From: Sphingomonas sp. LR60 | GTDB lineage: Bacteria; Pseudomonadota; Alphaproteobacteria; Sphingomonadales; Sphingomonadaceae | Direction: 5' to 3' | DNA: 64,000 nt | Assembly (NCBI RefSeq): GCF_036855935.1 | Contig: NZ_JASPFK010000001.1 | Coordinates: 312,501 to 376,500 of the forward strand | Shown here: one piece after another, positions 8,937 through 58,862 of the stretch | Layout: each line of letters begins with the position of its first letter | How positions within the stretch are numbered: position 1 is the stretch's first letter | Made by a program: the position numbers and the translations under genes | The notes under the pieces: generated by a model | Seen by the model: only the letters and a program-made list of their open reading frames with translations | What the model was told of the DNA's origin: nothing | The model's database searches: none

Positions 8937-10442
8937 ATGGGGACAGCGGCGTTCGACGAGATCATGGGGGTAAGTGGCGCCGATGGTGCCCGCCCCGAGT
9001 TGCGGGAATTGTGCGGCTGGCTGGCCGACACGCCCGATGGCGAATTGCGCCGCCGCCAGCAGTCCGCCGAAACGACCTTCCGCCAGCTCGGCATCACCTT
9101 CGCGGTTTATGGTGAGAGCGATGCGGGTGAGCGGATCATCCCGTTCGATATCGTTCCGCGCGTCTTCCTCGCCGACGAATGGGCGCGGCTGTCCGAAGGG
9201 CTGATCCAGCGTGTCGAGGCGATCAACGCCTTCCTCGTCGACATCTATGGCGACCAGAAGATCCTGCGCGACGGCGTGCTGCCTGCCGACCTGATCCTCG
9301 GCAACGCGCAATTCCGCCCCGAAGTCGCCGGCATCCGCCCGCCGCACGACGTGTGGGCGCATATCTGCGGGATCGACCTCGTCCGCACAGGCCCGGACGA
9401 TTTCTTCGTGCTGGAGGACAATGCCCGCACGCCGTCGGGTGTGAGCTACATGCTGGAAAACCGCGAGGCGATGGTGCGGCTCTGCCCGGAGCTGTTCGCC
9501 AAGTTCCGCGTCGCCGCGGTCGACAGCTATCCCGATCGGCTGCTGGAGACGATGCGGTCGGTCGCGCCGCGTGGCTGCGGCGGTCCGCGCCCGACCTGCG
9601 TGGTGCTGACGCCCGGCCATTACAATTCAGCCTATTACGAGCACAGCTTCCTCGCCGATTCGATGGGCGTCGAGCTGGTCGAGGCCGCCGACCTCGTCGT
9701 CGATGACGACGTCGTCTACATGCGCACGATCGAGGGCCGCGTCCGTGTCGACGTCATCTATCGCCGGGTCGACGACGATTATCTCGATCCGCTCGTCTTC
9801 CGCCCGGATTCGATGCTCGGCGTGCCGGGGCTGATCGCGGCCTATGCCTCGGGCAACGTCGCCATCCTGAACGCACCGGGCAACGGCATCGCCGATGACA
9901 AGGCGATCTACAGCTACATGCCGGAGATCGTGAAATATTACTCGGGCAGCGAAGCGCGGCTGCCCAATGTCGAAACCTATCGCTGCCGCGAGCCGCAGGC
10001 GCTCAAATACGTCCTCGACCATCTCGACCAACTGGTGGTCAAATTGGTCGATGGATCTGGCGGCTACGGGATGCTGGTCGGCCCGACCGCCTCGACGGCG
10101 GAGATCGAGCGCTTCCGCACGGCGCTGATCGCCGAGCCCGAGCGCTATATCGCGCAGCCGACGCTGGCACTGTCCACCGTCCCCACCCTGGTCGAACAGG
10201 GCGTCGCACCACGCCACGTCGATTTCCGCCCGTTCGTGCTGACCGGCGCGAAGGGCGTGCAGGTCGTGCCGGGCGGGCTGACCCGCGTCGCGCTCCGCGA
10301 GGGCTCGCTGGTCGTGAACTCGTCGCAGGGCGGCGGGACCAAGGACAGTTTCGTGCTGATGGACGAACCCCGTGGCATGACCCAGTCGATGTCGGGCGCG
10401 GCCGGCACGATGACGCAGACGCTGGGCGGGGGACAGCGCTGA
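8937..10442 (+). CDS. circularly permuted type-2 ATP-grasp protein (COG2308), cluster 1
   Basis: A 501-residue protein of the DUF404/DUF407 circularly permuted ATP-grasp family, predicted to form peptide or amide bonds. Visible motifs: DIYGDQKILRDGVLP, FVLEDNARTPSGVSYMLENR (acidic and Asn ligands), NAPGNGIADDKAIYSYMPE, a Lys/Gly-rich nucleotide-binding stretch VVKLVDGSGGYGM (about residue 370), and the closing RPFVLTGAKGVQVVPGGLTRVA. All expected ligand positions look intact. It is first in a tightly packed operon: its TGA overlaps the ATG of the alpha-E gene, which in turn overlaps the transglutaminase gene. Iyer and colleagues placed this gene set among predicted amidoligase/peptide-synthesis systems; the product is unknown. 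Confidence 0.9.
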   Translation: MGTAAFDEIMGVSGADGARPELRELCGWLADTPDGELRRRQQSAETTFRQLGITFAVYGESDAGERIIPFDIVPRVFLADEWARLSEGLIQRVEAINAFLVDIYGDQKILRDGVLPADLILGNAQFRPEVAGIRPPHDVWAHICGIDLVRTGPDDFFVLEDNARTPSGVSYMLENREAMVRLCPELFAKFRVAAVDSYPDRLLETMRSVAPRGCGGPRPTCVVLTPGHYNSAYYEHSFLADSMGVELVEAADLVVDDDVVYMRTIEGRVRVDVIYRRVDDDYLDPLVFRPDSMLGVPGLIAAYASGNVAILNAPGNGIADDKAIYSYMPEIVKYYSGSEARLPNVETYRCREPQALKYVLDHLDQLVVKLVDGSGGYGMLVGPTASTAEIERFRTALIAEPERYIAQPTLALSTVPTLVEQGVAPRHVDFRPFVLTGAKGVQVVPGGLTRVALREGSLVVNSSQGGGTKDSFVLMDEPRGMTQSMSGAAGTMTQTLGGGQR

Positions 10443-11377
10443 TGCTCAGTCGTACCGCCGCGTCGCTCTACTGGCTCGGCCGCTATGTCGAGCGCGCCGA
10501 TTTCGTCGCGCGACTGATCGAGGCGACGCTGCGCCTTGACGTCCTTTCCCCGCGCTCGGCGGGCGAGGATGCGTGGCGCACCGCGCTTGCGGTAAGCGAA
10601 ACCGACGATGCTTTCGCAGCGGGCGGCCATGTCGTCAGCCGCGAAGAGGTCGCACACTTCCTGCTCGCCGACAGCTCGCATCCGGGTTCGATCCTGCGCT
10701 GCCTCGCGATGGCGCGCGACAATGCCCGCGCGGTGCGCACCGCGCTCAGCCGCGAAGCGTGGCAGGCGATCAACGGCGCATGGCTGATCTTCGATCAACG
10801 GATCGGCCGGCTCGATCCGACCGCGGTGCTCGGGGTGGTCGATGCGGTCAAGGCCGAGACACGCGGGTTCGAGGGCGCGGTGCACCGGATGCTCCGCAAC
10901 CAGACGACCTCGTTCATCCGGCTTGGGCAGGCGGTCGAGCGCACCGACAACACCGCGCGGCTGCTCGACGTCAAATATCACATCCTGCTCCCTGAGGGCG
11001 AACGCGTCGGCGGTACGGTCGATCGCGACCAGTGGACGACGATCCTCCAGACCGTCTCGGCCGTCACCGCCTTTCGCTGGCTTTACAACGACGGGCTCAA
11101 CCCGACCAACGTCATCGACCTGCTGCTCAGCCGCGGCGAGCTGCCGCGGAGCCTCGCCGCTTCGATCGAGGAGACCGTCGCCGCGCTCACCGCGCTCGCG
11201 CGCGCCAGCGGGACGCAAGGCGAGGCCGACCGGATGGCCCGTACCCGCCACGCGCGCGTCGCGCGCACCCGCACCGGCGACGTGATCGCCGCCGGGCTCC
11301 ACCAACATCTCCAGGCCCTGATCGTCGAGAACGCGCAATTGCACGACGCGATCGGCCGGCAGTTCAAGTTCCACTGA
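10442..11377 (+). CDS. alpha-E domain protein (COG2307), cluster 1
   Basis: A 311-residue all-helical protein of the alpha-E (DUF403) family. It opens with the family signature RTAASLYWLGRYVERADFVARLIEAT and has repeated aligned helices: SREEVAHFLL, RCLAMARDNARAVRTALS and RLGQAVERTDNTARLLDVKYH. Alpha-E proteins almost always accompany the circularly permuted ATP-grasp and a transglutaminase-like protein; no catalytic activity is known. Translation is coupled at both ends through one-base stop/start overlaps with its neighbours. There is a separate paralogue fused to an ATP-grasp domain at 56397-58862. Confidence 0.9.
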   Translation: MLSRTAASLYWLGRYVERADFVARLIEATLRLDVLSPRSAGEDAWRTALAVSETDDAFAAGGHVVSREEVAHFLLADSSHPGSILRCLAMARDNARAVRTALSREAWQAINGAWLIFDQRIGRLDPTAVLGVVDAVKAETRGFEGAVHRMLRNQTTSFIRLGQAVERTDNTARLLDVKYHILLPEGERVGGTVDRDQWTTILQTVSAVTAFRWLYNDGLNPTNVIDLLLSRGELPRSLAASIEETVAALTALARASGTQGEADRMARTRHARVARTRTGDVIAAGLHQHLQALIVENAQLHDAIGRQFKFH

Positions 11378-12177
11378 TGCGCCTGACCATCGACCACCGC
11401 ACCACCTATCGCTTCACCGCGCCGCAGGGCCGCGTCGTGCAATTGCTGCGCATGACCCCGCGCAACACGCACGATCAAACGGTGGCGGCGTGGAACATCA
11501 ACATCGATTGCGACGCGCGGCTGCGCGAGCATCGCGATGGCTTCGGCAACATCACGACGATGCTCTATGCCGAGGGGCCGCTGACGGGGATCGAGATCAG
11601 CGTTTCCGGCGAAGTGGTGACGAGTTCGTCGAGCGGCGTGCTGCACGGCACGTTCGAGCCGCTGCCTGCCGCGCTCTATCTGCGCAGCACCCCCGCGACC
11701 CACGCGGAATCCGCGCTTGCCGCCTTCGCGCAGGCCGAAGTCGAAGGGCGGACGCCGATCGCCGCGCTCCACGCGCTCAACCGCGCGCTCCACCGGCGCT
11801 TCACCATCGTCGACGGCCGTCCCGAGCCGGGGCTCACCGTCACCGCCGCCTTCGCGCGGGACACCGCCACCGCACGCGACTTGGCCCAGATGTTCGTCGC
11901 CGCCGCGCGCGCCGCCAATTTCCCGGCGCGCTACGTCACCGGCTATTGCGACATACTGGCCGGTGGCCGTGCGACGCCGCATGGCTGGGCAGAGGTGTGG
12001 GTCGAGGGACTCGGCTGGGTAGGGTTCGACCCGACGCTCGGATCGTCGCCGGAGGCGCACCACGTTCGCGTCGCGGTCGCGCTCGACGCTGCCGGTTGCT
12101 CGCCAGTCGCCGGGTCGCGGCTGGGCGAAGGACGCGAATGGCTCGACGTCGAGGTGCAGGTCAGCGCGCAGGATTGA
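11377..12177 (+). CDS. transglutaminase-like protein lacking the catalytic cysteine, cluster 1
   Basis: A 266-residue protein with the N-terminal beta domain of bacterial transglutaminase-like proteins (MRLTIDHRTTYRFTAPQGRV) and the papain-like core. The His (PHGWAEVWVEGLGWVGF, H202) and Asp (VGFDPT, D218) of the triad are present. The position of the nucleophilic Cys, normally GVCQDFA, reads TATARDLA, so Cys is replaced by Ala166 (codon 11872-11874, gca) while the next helix (QMFVAAARAANFPARYVTGY) aligns without gaps. No other Cys lies nearby in the right place. It is therefore likely a pseudoenzyme or binding subunit. It is the third gene of the ATP-grasp/alpha-E operon; the paralogue at 55324-56235 keeps the Cys. 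Confidence 0.85.
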   Translation: MRLTIDHRTTYRFTAPQGRVVQLLRMTPRNTHDQTVAAWNINIDCDARLREHRDGFGNITTMLYAEGPLTGIEISVSGEVVTSSSSGVLHGTFEPLPAALYLRSTPATHAESALAAFAQAEVEGRTPIAALHALNRALHRRFTIVDGRPEPGLTVTAAFARDTATARDLAQMFVAAARAANFPARYVTGYCDILAGGRATPHGWAEVWVEGLGWVGFDPTLGSSPEAHHVRVAVALDAAGCSPVAGSRLGEGREWLDVEVQVSAQD

Positions 12178-13515: not shown

Positions 13516-14274
13516 TCAAGCGGTCACTGGCTGCGCTTCATCCTCGGGCATCAACACCCAGCCATGCGCCGCGAGCATCTCGATCGGACGATAGCGCGTC
13601 TTATACGCCATCCGCTGCGAGCCCTTCACCCAATAGCCTAGGTACACATATGGCAGCCCCGCCTCACGCGCGCGGGCGATATGGTCGAGGATGATGTAAT
13701 TGCCGAGCGCCGGGCGCGCATCCTGGTCGGTGTCGAAGAAGCTGTAGACCATCGACAGCCCGTCCGCCTGCCGGTCGGTCAGGCAACAGCCGACCAGCTT
13801 TCCCGGCCGTCCGTCGTCGGACGGCTCGCGATATTCGACCACCACCGAATTGACCGGCGAATGCTCGATCATGTCGGCAAAGTCGCCTTCGTCCATCGCC
13901 GCCATCCCGCCGCCGGGGTGCCGCGCCGACAGATAGCGGCGCATCAGCGTATATTGCTCGTCGGTCGCCCACGGCCGACATGCCGTCACGTCGAGATCGC
14001 CGTGGCGGCGGACCAGCTTGCGCTGCGTCGCGTTCGGTTCGAACTCGCGCGTGCGCACCCGCACCGACACGCAGGCGGCACACCCCGCGCAGCTTGGGCG
14101 ATAGGCGACCGACTGGCTGCGGCGAAAACCGATCCGGCCCAGCGCGTCGTTCAGCTCACCGGCCTCGGGGCCGGTCAATTCGGTGAACACCTTCCGCTCC
14201 TGCCGGCCGGGCAGGTACGGGCACGGCTGCGGGCTGGTGACGAAGAAGCGCGGGAAGCGGAACGGTGCCGTCAT
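13516..14274 (-). CDS. bpt: aspartate/glutamate leucyltransferase (Bpt), N-degron pathway
   Basis: A 252-residue aminoacyl-tRNA-protein transferase. Diagnostic features are the N-terminal [19 protein letters not shown] with its cysteine, [19 protein letters not shown] with a Cys cluster, the AVRV-like RVRTREF region, and the C-terminal [20 protein letters not shown] which is nearly invariant in Bpt and eukaryotic ATE1. It adds leucine from Leu-tRNA to proteins with N-terminal Asp or Glu, marking them for ClpS/ClpAP. Length is normal for the family. Confidence 0.93.
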
Positions 14275-55323: not shown

Positions 55324-56235
55324 TTACGCTGGCTCCGCGATCGCCTCGACGATGCCCTCGACGATCGGCGCCACGTCGACGCTGACCTCCATCGCCTGCG
55401 CCCCCGATCCCAGCACCACGCCGTCGACCGGCGCGATCTCGGCATAGTCGCGCCCGATCGCGACGACGATATGGTCGCCTGCCATCCAGATGCCGTTGGT
55501 GGGATCGACCCCGACCCAGCCGCGCACCGGCCCGCACCAGATCAGCACCCAGGCGTGCGTCGCATCGGCGCCGACCAGCCGTTCCTGCCCGGGCGGCGGG
55601 ATGGTGCGGATATAGCCCGAGGCATAAGCGGCGGGCAGCCCGGCGGCACGCAGCCCGGTCAGCATGATCTGCGCGAAATCCTGACAGACGCCGCTGCGCT
55701 TGGCGAACGCCTCGTGCGGCGGCGTGTCGACCAGGGTCGCCGTGGGATCGAACGCAAAGTCGCGCTGGATCCGCCGCGCCAGCGCGATCCCGGCCTCCAG
55801 CACGTTGCGGTCGGGCGACAGATCGGGCGCGCAATAATCGGCGATCGCACGGTCGAGCGGGATCAACGGCGACGGGAACAGATACGCCGCCGGCCCCGCC
55901 GCCGAGACGTCGCCGGACGCACGGGCGAGCGCGCAGACCTCGGCGATCGAGAGATCGCTCGCGTCGGGCACCGGCACCAGCCGGTCGACCGTCAGCCGCG
56001 CGACACTCTCGATCGTCAGCCGCCGGACCCGCTCGTCGACCACCAGCCGGGTGACATGCGCCAGCCCCGCTTCGGCATGTGCCTCGGTGGTCCGCCCGGA
56101 GGGCGCGACATGGAGCGCATATTCCTCCAGCTTCTGCCCCGGCCAGTCGATCGGCTTCAGCCGCAGGTTGCAGCGCGCGAACTTGACCGCATTGCCATAG
56201 TCGAAGCGGGTGATGTGGCGGATGTCATAGCGCAT
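55324..56235 (-). CDS. transglutaminase-like cysteine peptidase family protein, cluster 2
   Basis: A 303-residue protein with the N-terminal beta domain (MRYDIRHITRFDYGNAVKFA, CNLRLKPIDWPGQ) and a complete catalytic triad: C184 in KRSGVCQDFAQIM, H227 in ADATHAWVLIW and D244 in GWVGVDPTNGIWM. It follows the ATP-grasp/alpha-E fusion gene on the same strand, separated by a family F palindrome. In this system the transglutaminase-like protein may cleave or rearrange a peptide or amide made by the ATP-grasp protein. Confidence 0.9.
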   Translation of the reverse strand: MRYDIRHITRFDYGNAVKFARCNLRLKPIDWPGQKLEEYALHVAPSGRTTEAHAEAGLAHVTRLVVDERVRRLTIESVARLTVDRLVPVPDASDLSIAEVCALARASGDVSAAGPAAYLFPSPLIPLDRAIADYCAPDLSPDRNVLEAGIALARRIQRDFAFDPTATLVDTPPHEAFAKRSGVCQDFAQIMLTGLRAAGLPAAYASGYIRTIPPPGQERLVGADATHAWVLIWCGPVRGWVGVDPTNGIWMAGDHIVVAIGRDYAEIAPVDGVVLGSGAQAMEVSVDVAPIVEGIVEAIAEPA

Positions 56236-56265
56236 CGATCAGGCCGTTCCTCTCGCCGCCACACC

Positions 56266-56374
56266 CGTTCGCCCTGAGGAGAGGCTGAGCGAAGTCGAAG
56301 CCTCGTCTCGAAGGGTACGCGCGATGCTTCGAGACGGCATTTCGACTGCGCTCAATGCCTCCTCAGCACGAACG
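56266..56374. repeat. palindromic repeat, family F, complete copy
   Basis: Arms CGTTCGCCCTGAGGAG / CTCCTCAGCACGAACG and AGTCGAAGCCTCGTCTCGAAG / CTTCGAGACGGCATTTCGACT flank a short core. It fills the gap between the fusion gene and the transglutaminase gene, within an operon. Confidence 0.85.
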
Positions 56375-56396
56375 GAGGGGTAGGGGGCGAGCGGGC

Positions 56397-58862
56397 TCAC
56401 GCCAGCGTCAACCCGCTCGCCCGCAACGGCTCCGCACCCTGCAGGAAATACCGCCGCGCGATCGCCTCCGACAGCCGGAACAGCCGATTCTCGACCTCCG
56501 ACAGCGTCTCGGGATCGAGCAGTGCCGCCTGCGCCGGGGCGACCAGGGCGTGCAGTTCGGTCGCCTCGATCTGCTGCGGCTCGGCCATGCCGTCGTCGTC
56601 GAGCACCGGCAGCGCCGCCAGATGCTCGCGGATCCGCTCGACCTGGAACGCCAGCGCGCGCGGATTGCCGGGATCGAGTACCGTCAGATCGACCACCGGC
56701 ACCCGCGCGATCCCGGTCAGATAGCGCTGGCGATAGCTGATCTGGCTGTCGGCGAGGTCGAGCAGCGTCGACAGATCGCCGGCCGACGCGCCGCTCATCC
56801 CGAAGATCCGCGCCGCGCGCGTGATCGCCCGCGCCCGCTCGATCCGCCGCCCGAGATCGTGGAACCGCCACGCCGCGGTCCGCCCCATATGCTCGGCCGA
56901 CAGCCCGGCGATCGCGGCATAGCGGCGCTGGAGCGACCCGGCGCGGTCGAGCATCCCGCGATGCGTCGGGAAGGGCGCGTCGAGCAACCGCACCATGTCC
57001 ACCGACAGCCGGTCGCGCGATCCGCCGGCGATCCGCTGCGCATGGGTGTTGATCGCCGCCACCGATTGCCAGCCGTCGCGCGCTTCCATCGCGGTGCGCG
57101 CGAAGGCGATCAACTCGGCGCGGCGGAAGCCGGTCGGGGCAGGGGCCGCGCCGCTGTCGACGATCTCGGCGACCAGCTTGGCGATCGTCGCGTCATCGGG
57201 CGCCGCGCCGGTATCGGCGTCGATCGAATGGCCGAGCATCACCCGGATCGCCGCCAGCAACGCCTCGCCGCGATCCAGATAGCGCCCGAGCCAGAAGAAA
57301 TTGTCCGCGACCCGGCTCGGCAAGGTGCCGGGATTGCGCCTTATGTGGAGCGAGTCCGGCGCGGGCAGCAACGAAACCGGCGAAACCGGCTCCGCACCGT
57401 GGACGCAGACGTCCGCAGACCACGTCCCTTCGCCCAGCACCGCGGCCCGCGGGTCGGGATGCTCGCCGATCCGCGCGAAGCCGCCCGGCAATACCTGCCA
57501 ATTGCCCTGCGCATCGCGCGCCGCGAACACCCGCAGCGTGAACGGGCGTGGCTCCAGCCGGTCCTCGATGATGACCGGCATCGTCGACAGCCGCACGATT
57601 TCCTGCCCGACGTAATCCTGCGGACGCCGCGTGAGATCGTCGAGGAATGCGGCGCGCTGCTCCTGCGTCAGGTCCGCCCCCGCGACCGGTGCCTCGCCCG
57701 GCAGTCCCAGCGTTCGCGCGCCGAACGCCGGCGACAGCAGCATCGACCCGAACTCGCCCGCGACATGCGCCGCCTCGCGCGGCTGCCCGCACCACCAGGT
57801 CGCGATATTGGGCAGGATCAGGTCCGCGCCGGTCAGCCGCGTGCTGAGTTGCGGCAGGAACGCCCCGAACGCCGGGCTTTCCAGCACCCCGGCGCCGGGC
57901 GCATTGGCGAGCACGACATTGCCCTGCGCCCAGACGTCGATCAGCCCCGGCACCCCGATCCGCGAGTGCGAATCGAACGCCAGCGGATCGAGCAGCCGCG
58001 GATCGAGCCGCCGCCACAGCGCATCGACACGCTTCAGCCCGCCGATCGTGCGGACGTACAGCCGATCCTCCAGCGCGGCGAGATCGTCGCCTTCGACCAG
58101 CAACAGCCCCAGATAGCGCGCCAGATGCGCCTGTTCGGGGTAGCTGGGATTGTAGCGCCCAGGGGTCAGCAATCCGATGCGCGGATCGCTGCGCCGGCAC
58201 GCCGCGGCCAGCCCCTCGCGGAACGCCGCGAAGAACGGCGCGTGGCGACGCACGTTGAGCCGCGCCTGCAGCCCGCCTAGCGTGCGGCTGACCGCAAGCC
58301 GGTTCTCCAGCGCATAGCCCGCCCCGGTCGGCGCACGCAGGTGGTCGGCAAGCACGCGCCACTCGCCCGACGGACTGCGCCCCAGGTCGATCGCGACGAA
58401 ATGCAGATGGTGCCCGCCGGGTGGCGCCAGCCCGACCAGCGGGCGCAGGAAGAACGGGCTGCCGGTGACGAGCGTCGCGGGAAAGTGCCCGCGTTCCACC
58501 AGCTTCGACGGGCCGTACAGATCGGCGAGGATCGTCTCGAACAGATCGGCGCGCTGGACGATCCCGCGCTCGATCAGGGACCATTCCTCCGCCTCGATCA
58601 GCAGCGGCATCGGGCTGACCGGCCACGGCCGCTCGCTGTCCTCGCCGATGATGCGGAAACCGGTGCCGATATCGATCGCGTGCCGCTGCACCCGCTCGCG
58701 CGCATGGCCGAGATCGTCGCCCGCGACCGCGGACAATTCCTCGAGCACCGCCAGCCACGGCGCGCCGGCACCGGCGCGCATCGTGTCGGACGACGTGCCT
58801 GCGTAATCGTCGAAGCGGCGGCGGGCGAGGGTGCCGGTATCGAAGAGGGGCTGCGTGGCCAG
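56397..58862 (-). CDS. circularly permuted ATP-grasp / alpha-E fusion protein, cluster 2, probable CTG start
   Basis: An 821-residue fusion. Residues ~1-500 are a COG2308 ATP-grasp domain (LYGPSKLVERGHFPATLV, LADHLRAPTGAGYALENR, DVWAQGNVVLANAPGAGVLE, RPFTLRVFAARDA), and ~510-821 an alpha-E domain (RVADNFFWLGRYLDRGEALL, WRFHDLGRRIERARAITRAAR). Compared with the stand-alone protein at 8937, EDN reads ADH and the nucleotide-site Lys stretch VVKLVDGSGG reads LLSPAFGART, as often seen in this fused subgroup. No ATG, GTG or TTG lies in frame upstream of residue 28; AAGGAGG sits 5 bases before a CTG at 58862, followed by ATQPLFDTGTLARRRFDDY, so CTG is the probable start. Confidence 0.85.
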   Translation of the reverse strand: MATQPLFDTGTLARRRFDDYAGTSSDTMRAGAGAPWLAVLEELSAVAGDDLGHARERVQRHAIDIGTGFRIIGEDSERPWPVSPMPLLIEAEEWSLIERGIVQRADLFETILADLYGPSKLVERGHFPATLVTGSPFFLRPLVGLAPPGGHHLHFVAIDLGRSPSGEWRVLADHLRAPTGAGYALENRLAVSRTLGGLQARLNVRRHAPFFAAFREGLAAACRRSDPRIGLLTPGRYNPSYPEQAHLARYLGLLLVEGDDLAALEDRLYVRTIGGLKRVDALWRRLDPRLLDPLAFDSHSRIGVPGLIDVWAQGNVVLANAPGAGVLESPAFGAFLPQLSTRLTGADLILPNIATWWCGQPREAAHVAGEFGSMLLSPAFGARTLGLPGEAPVAGADLTQEQRAAFLDDLTRRPQDYVGQEIVRLSTMPVIIEDRLEPRPFTLRVFAARDAQGNWQVLPGGFARIGEHPDPRAAVLGEGTWSADVCVHGAEPVSPVSLLPAPDSLHIRRNPGTLPSRVADNFFWLGRYLDRGEALLAAIRVMLGHSIDADTGAAPDDATIAKLVAEIVDSGAAPAPTGFRRAELIAFARTAMEARDGWQSVAAINTHAQRIAGGSRDRLSVDMVRLLDAPFPTHRGMLDRAGSLQRRYAAIAGLSAEHMGRTAAWRFHDLGRRIERARAITRAARIFGMSGASAGDLSTLLDLADSQISYRQRYLTGIARVPVVDLTVLDPGNPRALAFQVERIREHLAALPVLDDDGMAEPQQIEATELHALVAPAQAALLDPETLSEVENRLFRLSEAIARRYFLQGAEPLRASGLTLA

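What the first reader, a model, noticed from the sequence alone, without database searches (positions are those of the whole stretch)
8937..12177. Two ATP-grasp/alpha-E/transglutaminase clusters that appear complementary
Cluster 1 (8937-12177) has an ATP-grasp protein with EDN and VVKLVDGSGG motifs intact but a transglutaminase whose nucleophilic Cys is Ala166. Cluster 2 (55324-58862) has an intact Cys-His-Asp triad in its transglutaminase but a fused ATP-grasp/alpha-E protein with ADH and LLSPAFGART at the matching sites. The system is conserved and predicted to make or modify a peptide or amide, with no known product. The mirrored pattern suggests one split machine: cluster 1 makes the bond, cluster 2 carries the thiol hydrolase or transferase, and the two degenerate partners serve as scaffolds.
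Basis: partly seen in the sequence, partly recalled or inferred. Interest (0 to 1): 0.72.

Follow-up and report, generated by a model that had tools for sequence, protein, structure and literature searches.

The report
Two gene clusters, one amide machine
In Sphingomonas bacteria an uncharacterised peptide-making system is split over two distant gene clusters, each keeping one enzyme that looks able to work and one dead relative of the other's enzyme, and some other bacteria carry the same parts in one stretch of DNA, so the clusters very probably work as one machine.

Summary
Cluster 1 has an ATP-grasp ligase with its conserved motifs (AG1), an alpha-E protein and a transglutaminase-fold protein (TG1) with Ala166 at the nucleophile. 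Cluster 2 has a fused ATP-grasp/alpha-E protein (FU2) without those motifs and a transglutaminase (TG2) with Cys-His-Asp.

The "one split machine" idea survives its own refutation test. Of 97 loci from genomes without FU2, TG1 is readable in 91, and all 91 keep Cys. Of 128 loci from FU2-bearing genomes, 73 lost Cys, 32 keep it, 22 show no TG1, 1 is cut. The 11 losses inferred if loss is irreversible all fall on FU2-bearing branches (8 changes is the minimum). FU2 was not seen without cluster-1 parts in three genome surveys. In three Burkholderia all parts lie in one locus, again with a Cys-less TG1 and a degenerate FU2.

Corrections: FU2's degeneration is old and family-wide, not a mirror event. 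The putative ligase DUF2126, usual in cluster 2 elsewhere in the family, is missing in 140 of 141 genus genomes. Cys-less TG1 is under purifying selection: a retained pseudoenzyme.

Product and physical contact remain untested.

The parts
8937..10442 (+). AG1: circularly permuted ATP-grasp with conserved motifs (predicted live ligase)
   Evidence: PF14403 543.5 bits, PF04174 482.1 bits; nearest solved structure by sequence 3n6x, E 2.4e-186; E160, N162, D320-K322, K369 invariant in a 29-sequence alignment
9414..9422 (+). codons of EDN 160-162 in AG1
   Evidence: EDN in 231 of 231 loci; place computed from the ORF
10442..11377 (+). AE1: stand-alone alpha-E protein; overlaps AG1 and TG1 by one base at each end
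   Evidence: PF04168 264.6 bits; coordinates
11377..12177 (+). TG1: transglutaminase-fold protein without nucleophile (pseudoenzyme)
   Evidence: PF08379 and PF01841; model pLDDT 85.5, best fold match 3isr; dN/dS 0.13-0.14 against three close relatives
11872..11874 (+). Ala166 codon at the nucleophile position of TG1
   Evidence: same alignment column as TG2 Cys184
56397..58781 (-). FU2: degenerate ATP-grasp fused to alpha-E
   Evidence: PF14403 437.2 bits, PF04168 186.7 bits; EDN motif absent in the family
58341..58349 (-). ADH 145-147 of FU2, at the EDN site
   Evidence: place computed from the ORF
57711..57740 (-). LLSPAFGART 348-357 of FU2, at the Lys/GSGG loop
   Evidence: place computed from the ORF
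55324..56235 (-). TG2: transglutaminase-fold protein with Cys184, His227, Asp244 (predicted live)
   Evidence: Cys in 62 of 62 orthologs

Best explanation
The two clusters are unlinked halves of one amide-bond system, of the kind predicted for ATP-grasp/alpha-E/transglutaminase operons. AG1 is the only CP-ATP-grasp of the genome with intact motifs; by its family it should activate a carboxylate with ATP and join it to an amine. TG2 is the only Bact_transglu_N protein with a nucleophile; it should hydrolyse or transfer the same or a related amide. FU2 and TG1 are retained pseudoenzymes, most simply non-catalytic partners that bind substrate or hold the live enzymes together (FU2 with AG1 and AE1, TG1 with TG2). 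Likely history: a full set (AG1, AE1, TG1, TG-DUF2126, FU2, TG2), seen as one locus in Burkholderia, is split in sphingomonads; FU2 was already degenerate, TG2 made the TG1 nucleophile dispensable, and DUF2126 was lost in this genus. Shown: anatomy, co-occurrence, Cys loss only where FU2 is present, purifying selection, single-locus relatives. Inferred: catalysis, shared product, physical contact, order of events.
For: (1) Genomes without FU2: Cys in 91 of 97 loci, the other 6 having no readable TG1 site. FU2-bearing genomes: 73 of 128 loci lost Cys, 32 kept it, 22 show no TG1 in the stretch, 1 is cut. (2) On an AG1+alpha-E tree of 194 rows there are at least 8 changes of the Cys state; with irreversible loss 11 losses, all on branches whose lower end is reconstructed as FU2-bearing. 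Such branches hold 28-31% of the Cys-bearing branch length; chance of all falling there 8e-7 to 3e-6 for 11 events, 4e-5 to 9e-5 if 8, 0.006-0.009 if only 4 are independent. G029 (L412), without FU2 but placed inside the Cys-less clade, keeps Cys (branch support not examined). (3) FU2 without cluster-1 parts: none of 47 genomes in the family sample (G093 shows only a TG1 piece), none of 129 in the genus sample (G202 shows alpha-E and TG1 on one contig), none of 37 with E below 1e-85 in the class sample (G527 shows only an AG1-like fragment); the samples overlap slightly. (4) Burkholderia multivorans, arboris and stagnalis: AG1, AE1, TG1 (GTSRD), TG-DUF2126, FU2, TG2 in order on one strand; two Caballeronia records and an Enterobacter plasmid have the set without TG1. 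Five alphaproteobacterial genomes (G359, G365, G460, G499, G529) have FU2, TG2, AG1 and alpha-E side by side. (5) TG1 dN/dS 0.13-0.14 against three relatives, within the 0.06-0.34 of nine Cys-bearing pairs; His and Asp in all 51 Cys-less own-genus TG1. (6) In B. cenocepacia H111 four neighbouring genes I35_5080-5083 (DUF404/DUF407, DUF403, transglutaminase-like, large transglutaminase-like) are down 6.0- to 9.4-fold in the NtrC regulon data (PMC5491218, passages); the passages do not name FU2 or TG2 genes.
Against: No physical or biochemical link was tested; for the Yersinia Anbu operon pull-downs found no specific complex (PMC6376114, passages). 32 FU2-bearing loci keep Cys in TG1, so loss is allowed, not required. 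The independent-pairs test on the first tree found 5 pairs, 1.8 on average going the same way, none the other way, median p 0.5; it has too few pairs to reach 0.05. 57 of the 71 Cys-less rows come from one inferred event. FU2 degeneracy exists also beside intact TG1. Three genomes (L079, L088, L132) have a Cys one place earlier (GCSMD), which may not be a clean loss. Five plasmid-collection loci with FU2 show no AG1 in the stretch.
Confidence: 0.7

Rival explanations
1. Redundancy only: cluster 2 is an independent system whose transglutaminases cover for TG1, so the TG1 nucleophile decays under relaxed selection with no shared machine.
For: Cys loss was seen only where FU2 and its TGs exist; 22 of 128 FU2-bearing loci show no TG1 near AG1, 20 of them in the class sample (of the 22, L182 is cut by a contig end and L078 has its TG1 elsewhere); TG1 evolves faster than AG1 in all three window comparisons.
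Against: dN/dS 0.13-0.14 and full His/Asp conservation in own-genus Cys-less TG1; a new Arg after the old nucleophile is conserved (49 of 51); FU2 not seen without cluster-1 parts in the surveys; single-locus sets in Burkholderia, Caballeronia and Enterobacter.
Confidence: 0.17
2. TG1 is still an enzyme with a changed nucleophile or chemistry, for example the hydroxyl residue before the old Cys (Thr165) or Cys45.
For: Thr or Ser at the preceding position in 47 of 51 Cys-less own-genus TG1, Arg after it in 49 of 51, Cys45 in 48 of 51, His and Asp kept in all; three Burkholderia loci show the same T-x-R-D motif.
Against: In the model a helix begins at 166, so Thr165 sits where a helix N-cap is expected and Asp168 would complete a capping box (structural rule recalled); Pro occupies the old site in 26 of 51; Cys45 lies in the N-terminal beta part. 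Distances could not be measured, as coordinates were not returned.
Confidence: 0.08
3. Coincidental lineage effect: one or two early losses in a clade that happened to carry cluster 2.
For: 57 of the 71 Cys-less rows of the tree derive from one inferred event; independent-pairs test not significant.
Against: Further losses in G056 (L145), G362 (L377), G403 (L380) and in Burkholderia lie outside that clade; G029 without FU2 inside the clade keeps Cys.
Confidence: 0.05

Closest known systems
Predicted ATP-grasp/alpha-E/transglutaminase peptide-synthesis operon, with or without Anbu (Iyer et al. 2009, cited in PMC5666114 and PMC6376114; the 2009 paper itself was not held)
   Same: Same three families in the same gene order in cluster 1; the Yersinia ATP-grasp of this operon releases phosphate from ATP (PMC6376114, passages)
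   Different: No Anbu-like gene found in the own genome (one proteasome-family match, at a high score like HslV); TG1 lacks the nucleophile; a second unlinked cluster carries the live TG
TG-DUF2126 / fused ATP-grasp-alpha-E / transglutaminase cluster (Pfam: putative amidoligase enzyme DUF2126)
   Same: FU2 and TG2 of the window match its members by sequence and order
   Different: DUF2126 is absent in the window genome and in 139 of the other 140 genus genomes searched
RloA-RloB-RloC of Pseudomonas aeruginosa (PMC12239564)
   Same: An ATP-grasp protein acting with an 'inactive transglutaminase' in one operon, with genetic interaction reported (abstract and passages)
   Different: RloB is fused to seven transmembrane helices with a periplasmic domain; RloC shares 24% identity with RimK; the protease is a retropepsin; membership in the families here was not tested
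Glutathionylspermidine synthetase/amidase (recalled)
   Same: Works like: a circularly permuted ATP-grasp ligase paired with a papain-fold thiol amidase on one product; 3n6x is named a putative glutathionylspermidine synthase
   Different: Separate chains, different amidase family, product unknown; the profile search of A2 matched 3n6x alone

Membership tests
ATP-grasp/alpha-E/TG operon (cluster 1) | CP_ATPgrasp, Alpha-E and Bact_transglu_N/Transglut_core genes adjacent and co-directional | tested here: met
ATP-grasp/alpha-E/TG operon (cluster 1) | transglutaminase nucleophile Cys | tested here: not met
   Ala166
Anbu operon variant | Anbu gene in the operon | tested here: not met
   one PF00227 match in the genome, unlinked, at a high HslV-like score
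CP-ATP-grasp catalytic ligase (AG1) | conserved E/N, DDK and Lys-GSGG residues | tested here: met
CP-ATP-grasp catalytic ligase (FU2) | the same residues | tested here: not met
   ADH, LESP and LLSPAFGART
DUF2126 cluster | TG-DUF2126 gene next to the fused gene | tested here: not met
   no PF09899 match in G000
Transglutaminase-like cysteine enzyme (TG2) | Cys-His-Asp triad | tested here: met
Glutathionylspermidine synthetase/amidase | glutathionylspermidine made and cleaved | not testable with these tools
   biochemistry needed
One physical complex of the five proteins | stable association | not testable with these tools
   only single-chain modelling was offered

The most novel reading that the evidence does not exclude
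Sphingomonas builds an obligate hetero-subunit synthetase/amidase from two unlinked operons: each catalytic subunit (AG1, TG2) needs the pseudoenzyme relative from the other locus (FU2, TG1), and TG1's T-[A/P/S]-R-D helix cap is a converged non-catalytic form that also arose, independently, in Burkholderia.
Probability: 0.35. Interest if true: 0.75.

Novelty: new variant of a known kind. Interest (0 to 1): 0.62.

Why it matters
This system was found in 166 of 199 family and 94 of 212 class genomes searched, and no product was named in the papers I saw. The comparison says the two clusters should be studied together and names the one ligase and the one thiol enzyme whose removal should matter in Sphingomonas. 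It gives natural reference sets (five genes on an Enterobacter plasmid, six in one Burkholderia locus) and a dead-partner pattern that makes subunit cooperation directly testable. Sphingomonas, with the putative ligase DUF2126 already gone, is a simple host in which to look for the product.

Tried and rejected
The mirror reading (both degenerations as one reciprocal event) was rejected: FU2 lacks the motifs also where TG1 keeps Cys. A link of Cys loss to DUF2126 loss alone was rejected: DUF2126-bearing genomes such as G028, G031, G034, G071, G084, G094, G110, G114, G171, G174 and G182 lost Cys. Sigma-54 promoters: 15 matches in the window against 20.3 expected. Relatives of FU2 in viral contigs: none confirmed. 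The independent-pairs test was not significant. The uncorrected Fisher test is not used, as it ignores kinship. Searches for earlier reports of this pattern listed no paper naming it, within open-licence PMC papers only; I saw listings, and passages of eight papers.

Sampling: loci without FU2 were 79 of the family's one-match genomes (chosen from the printed list, not at random), all 8 of the genus and 10 of the class. Some are incomplete genomes (G007, G022, G177, G190), where FU2 may be missing from the assembly. FU2-bearing loci were 46 from the family, 52 of 129 of the genus and 30 of the class. Dropped before counting: L424 (a 100-base filler), L149 (G093, a TG1 piece with Cys, FU2-bearing), L150-L152 (other TG matches). 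Unreadable: L148, L158, L182 (ends of contigs). G027 is counted twice (L078 without TG1, L129 with it). L129 and L131 are not in the trees. The realignment left one more FU2-bearing row unreadable (72 lost instead of 73).
Full report
Anatomy. Cluster 1 is AG1 (8937-10442), alpha-E (10442-11377) and TG1 (11377-12177), on the + strand with one-base overlaps. Cluster 2 is FU2 (58781-56397) and TG2 (56235-55324) on the - strand. Pfam assigns all five proteins to the expected families. TG1 Ala166 aligns with TG2 Cys184, and both keep His and Asp. AG1 reads EDN and VVKLVDGSGG; FU2 reads ADH and LLSPAFGART there. The genome has two CP-ATP-grasps, two alpha-E domains and two Bact_transglu_N proteins, no DUF2126, and one proteasome-family match far away with a high score, unlike the weak matches near cluster 1 in G362 and G375 (naming these HslV and Anbu is by score and place). 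Of the 80 best relatives of AG1 in named genomes, 78 carry Sphingomonas in the title shown.

FU2 is an old pseudo-ligase. AG1 orthologs read EDN in 231 of 231 loci (some genomes more than once); of 67 FU2-type proteins none does (ADH 37, the others also xDx), and none of the 40 loop variants printed keeps GSGG. In a 26-row FU2 alignment the E, N and Lys positions are not among the conserved ones, while they are invariant in 29 AG1 rows. In 11 further loci, from Alpha-, Beta- and Gammaproteobacteria and an acidobacterium, FU2 reads AQH, AHH, AHR, SDR, ADR or GDR; the Lys position is kept in 5 of the 11. That these residues bind metal and ATP is family knowledge, recalled.

TG1 and the refutation test. 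I fetched cluster-1 loci from genomes with and without FU2. Without FU2: 97 loci, of which 91 have Cys, 5 show no TG1 in the stretch and 1 is cut. With FU2: 128 loci, of which 32 have Cys, 73 another residue, 22 no TG1 in the stretch and 1 is cut (72 and 2 after the realignment). In the own genus, 51 of 51 readable FU2-bearing loci of that set are Cys-less, as are G091 and G155, and 7 of 7 readable loci without FU2 have Cys. In the 80 named loci, which overlap with these genomes, 76 of 77 with a detected TG1 have P, A or S and one is a gap.

Tree. On a quick tree of AG1 plus alpha-E (194 rows) the Cys state changes at least 8 times. If loss is irreversible there are 11 losses, all on branches whose lower end is reconstructed as FU2-bearing. 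Those branches hold 28-31% of the Cys-bearing length, so chance would give this with probability near 1e-6 for 11 events and 4e-5 to 9e-5 for 8; counting only four gives 0.006-0.009. FU2 states were reconstructed by parsimony on a midpoint-rooted gene tree, a simplification, and support values were not weighed. The earlier independent-pairs test was not significant, with only 5 pairs. G029, which lacks FU2 and lies within the Cys-less clade, keeps Cys; three FU2-bearing members of that clade keep it too.

Dead but kept. Against three close relatives TG1 has dN/dS 0.13-0.14, AG1 0.05, TG2 0.07. Seven Cys-less TG1 pairs range from 0.04 to 0.48 and nine Cys-bearing pairs from 0.06 to 0.34, so constraint is similar. 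In 51 Cys-less own-genus TG1, His and Asp are kept in all, Arg after the old nucleophile in 49, Thr or Ser before it in 47. The model (pLDDT 85.5) starts a helix at residue 166, so Thr165 to Asp168 read as a helix cap (inference). The nearest solved fold is 3isr, E 7.6e-18.

One machine elsewhere. In Burkholderia multivorans, arboris and stagnalis the genes lie in the order AG1, alpha-E, TG1 (GTSRD), TG-DUF2126, FU2, TG2 on one strand within about 11 kb. Two Caballeronia records have the set without TG1, in one annotated case with a gene on the other strand between alpha-E and TG-DUF2126. An Enterobacter roggenkampii plasmid carries AG1, alpha-E, TG-DUF2126, FU2 and TG2 as five consecutive genes, with insertion sequences nearby. 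In five alphaproteobacterial genomes FU2, TG2, AG1 and alpha-E are neighbours without TG1. Conversely, five fetched records with FU2 and TG2 (Caballeronia SBC2, Azospirillum, Granulicella, Shinella, Sinorhizobium) show no AG1 in the stretch; two of them (Azospirillum, Shinella) have a second matching place in the record, and other replicons were not searched. In the genome surveys FU2 was not seen without cluster-1 parts: 47 in the family sample, 129 in the genus sample, 37 with E below 1e-85 in the class sample, with only fragmentary evidence in G093, G202 and G527.

Physiology. In Burkholderia cenocepacia H111 four neighbouring genes described as DUF404/DUF407, DUF403, transglutaminase-like and large transglutaminase-like are strongly down in the NtrC regulon data (PMC5491218, passages), which links at least that half of the system with nitrogen limitation there. 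The Yersinia ATP-grasp releases phosphate from ATP and no specific operon complex was detected (PMC6376114, passages).

Conclusion. The claim of one machine is well supported by comparison; the claim of a mirrored origin is not. The product, and whether the subunits touch, remain unknown.

Noticed in passing
13519-14274 (-): An ATE_N/ATE_C protein (tRNA-protein transferase family) lies near cluster 1; in L359, L364, L388 and L390 a protein with a similar start follows alpha-E directly where TG1 is missing (by eye).
   Followed up: partly
L367, L371, L373, L374, L383: Proteins with starts such as MTYCVGLL or AVTYCVGML, which I take for Anbu from recall, follow alpha-E where TG1 is missing.
   Followed up: no
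L450:5126-14317: The five-gene set sits on a 90 kb IncFII Enterobacter plasmid with IS6-family, IS26 and IS110 genes nearby, so it may travel as one unit.
   Followed up: partly
L293: Only G263 of 141 own-genus genomes has DUF2126, on another contig than its FU2 gene.
   Followed up: no
L129, L131: In G027 and G171 the Cys-less TG1 has no AG1 or alpha-E gene in the fetched stretch; in G027 it lies at 3.72 Mb against 0.23 Mb for AG1 on a 3.9 Mb contig.
   Followed up: no
L079, L088, L132: Three genomes read GCSMD, with Cys one place before the usual nucleophile; L079 also has Gln in place of His.
   Followed up: no
L442: In Sphingomonas parapaucimobilis YK209 FU2 and TG2 lie on a 395 kb replicon beside DnaJ-like, YihY and fabI genes, resembling the DnaJ-like and FabI-like ORFs next to cluster 2 in the window (by eye).
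   Followed up: no
G280:C1:773428-775793: In one genus genome the FU2 match falls into two overlapping ORFs (ATP-grasp part and alpha-E part), a split or a frameshift.
   Followed up: no
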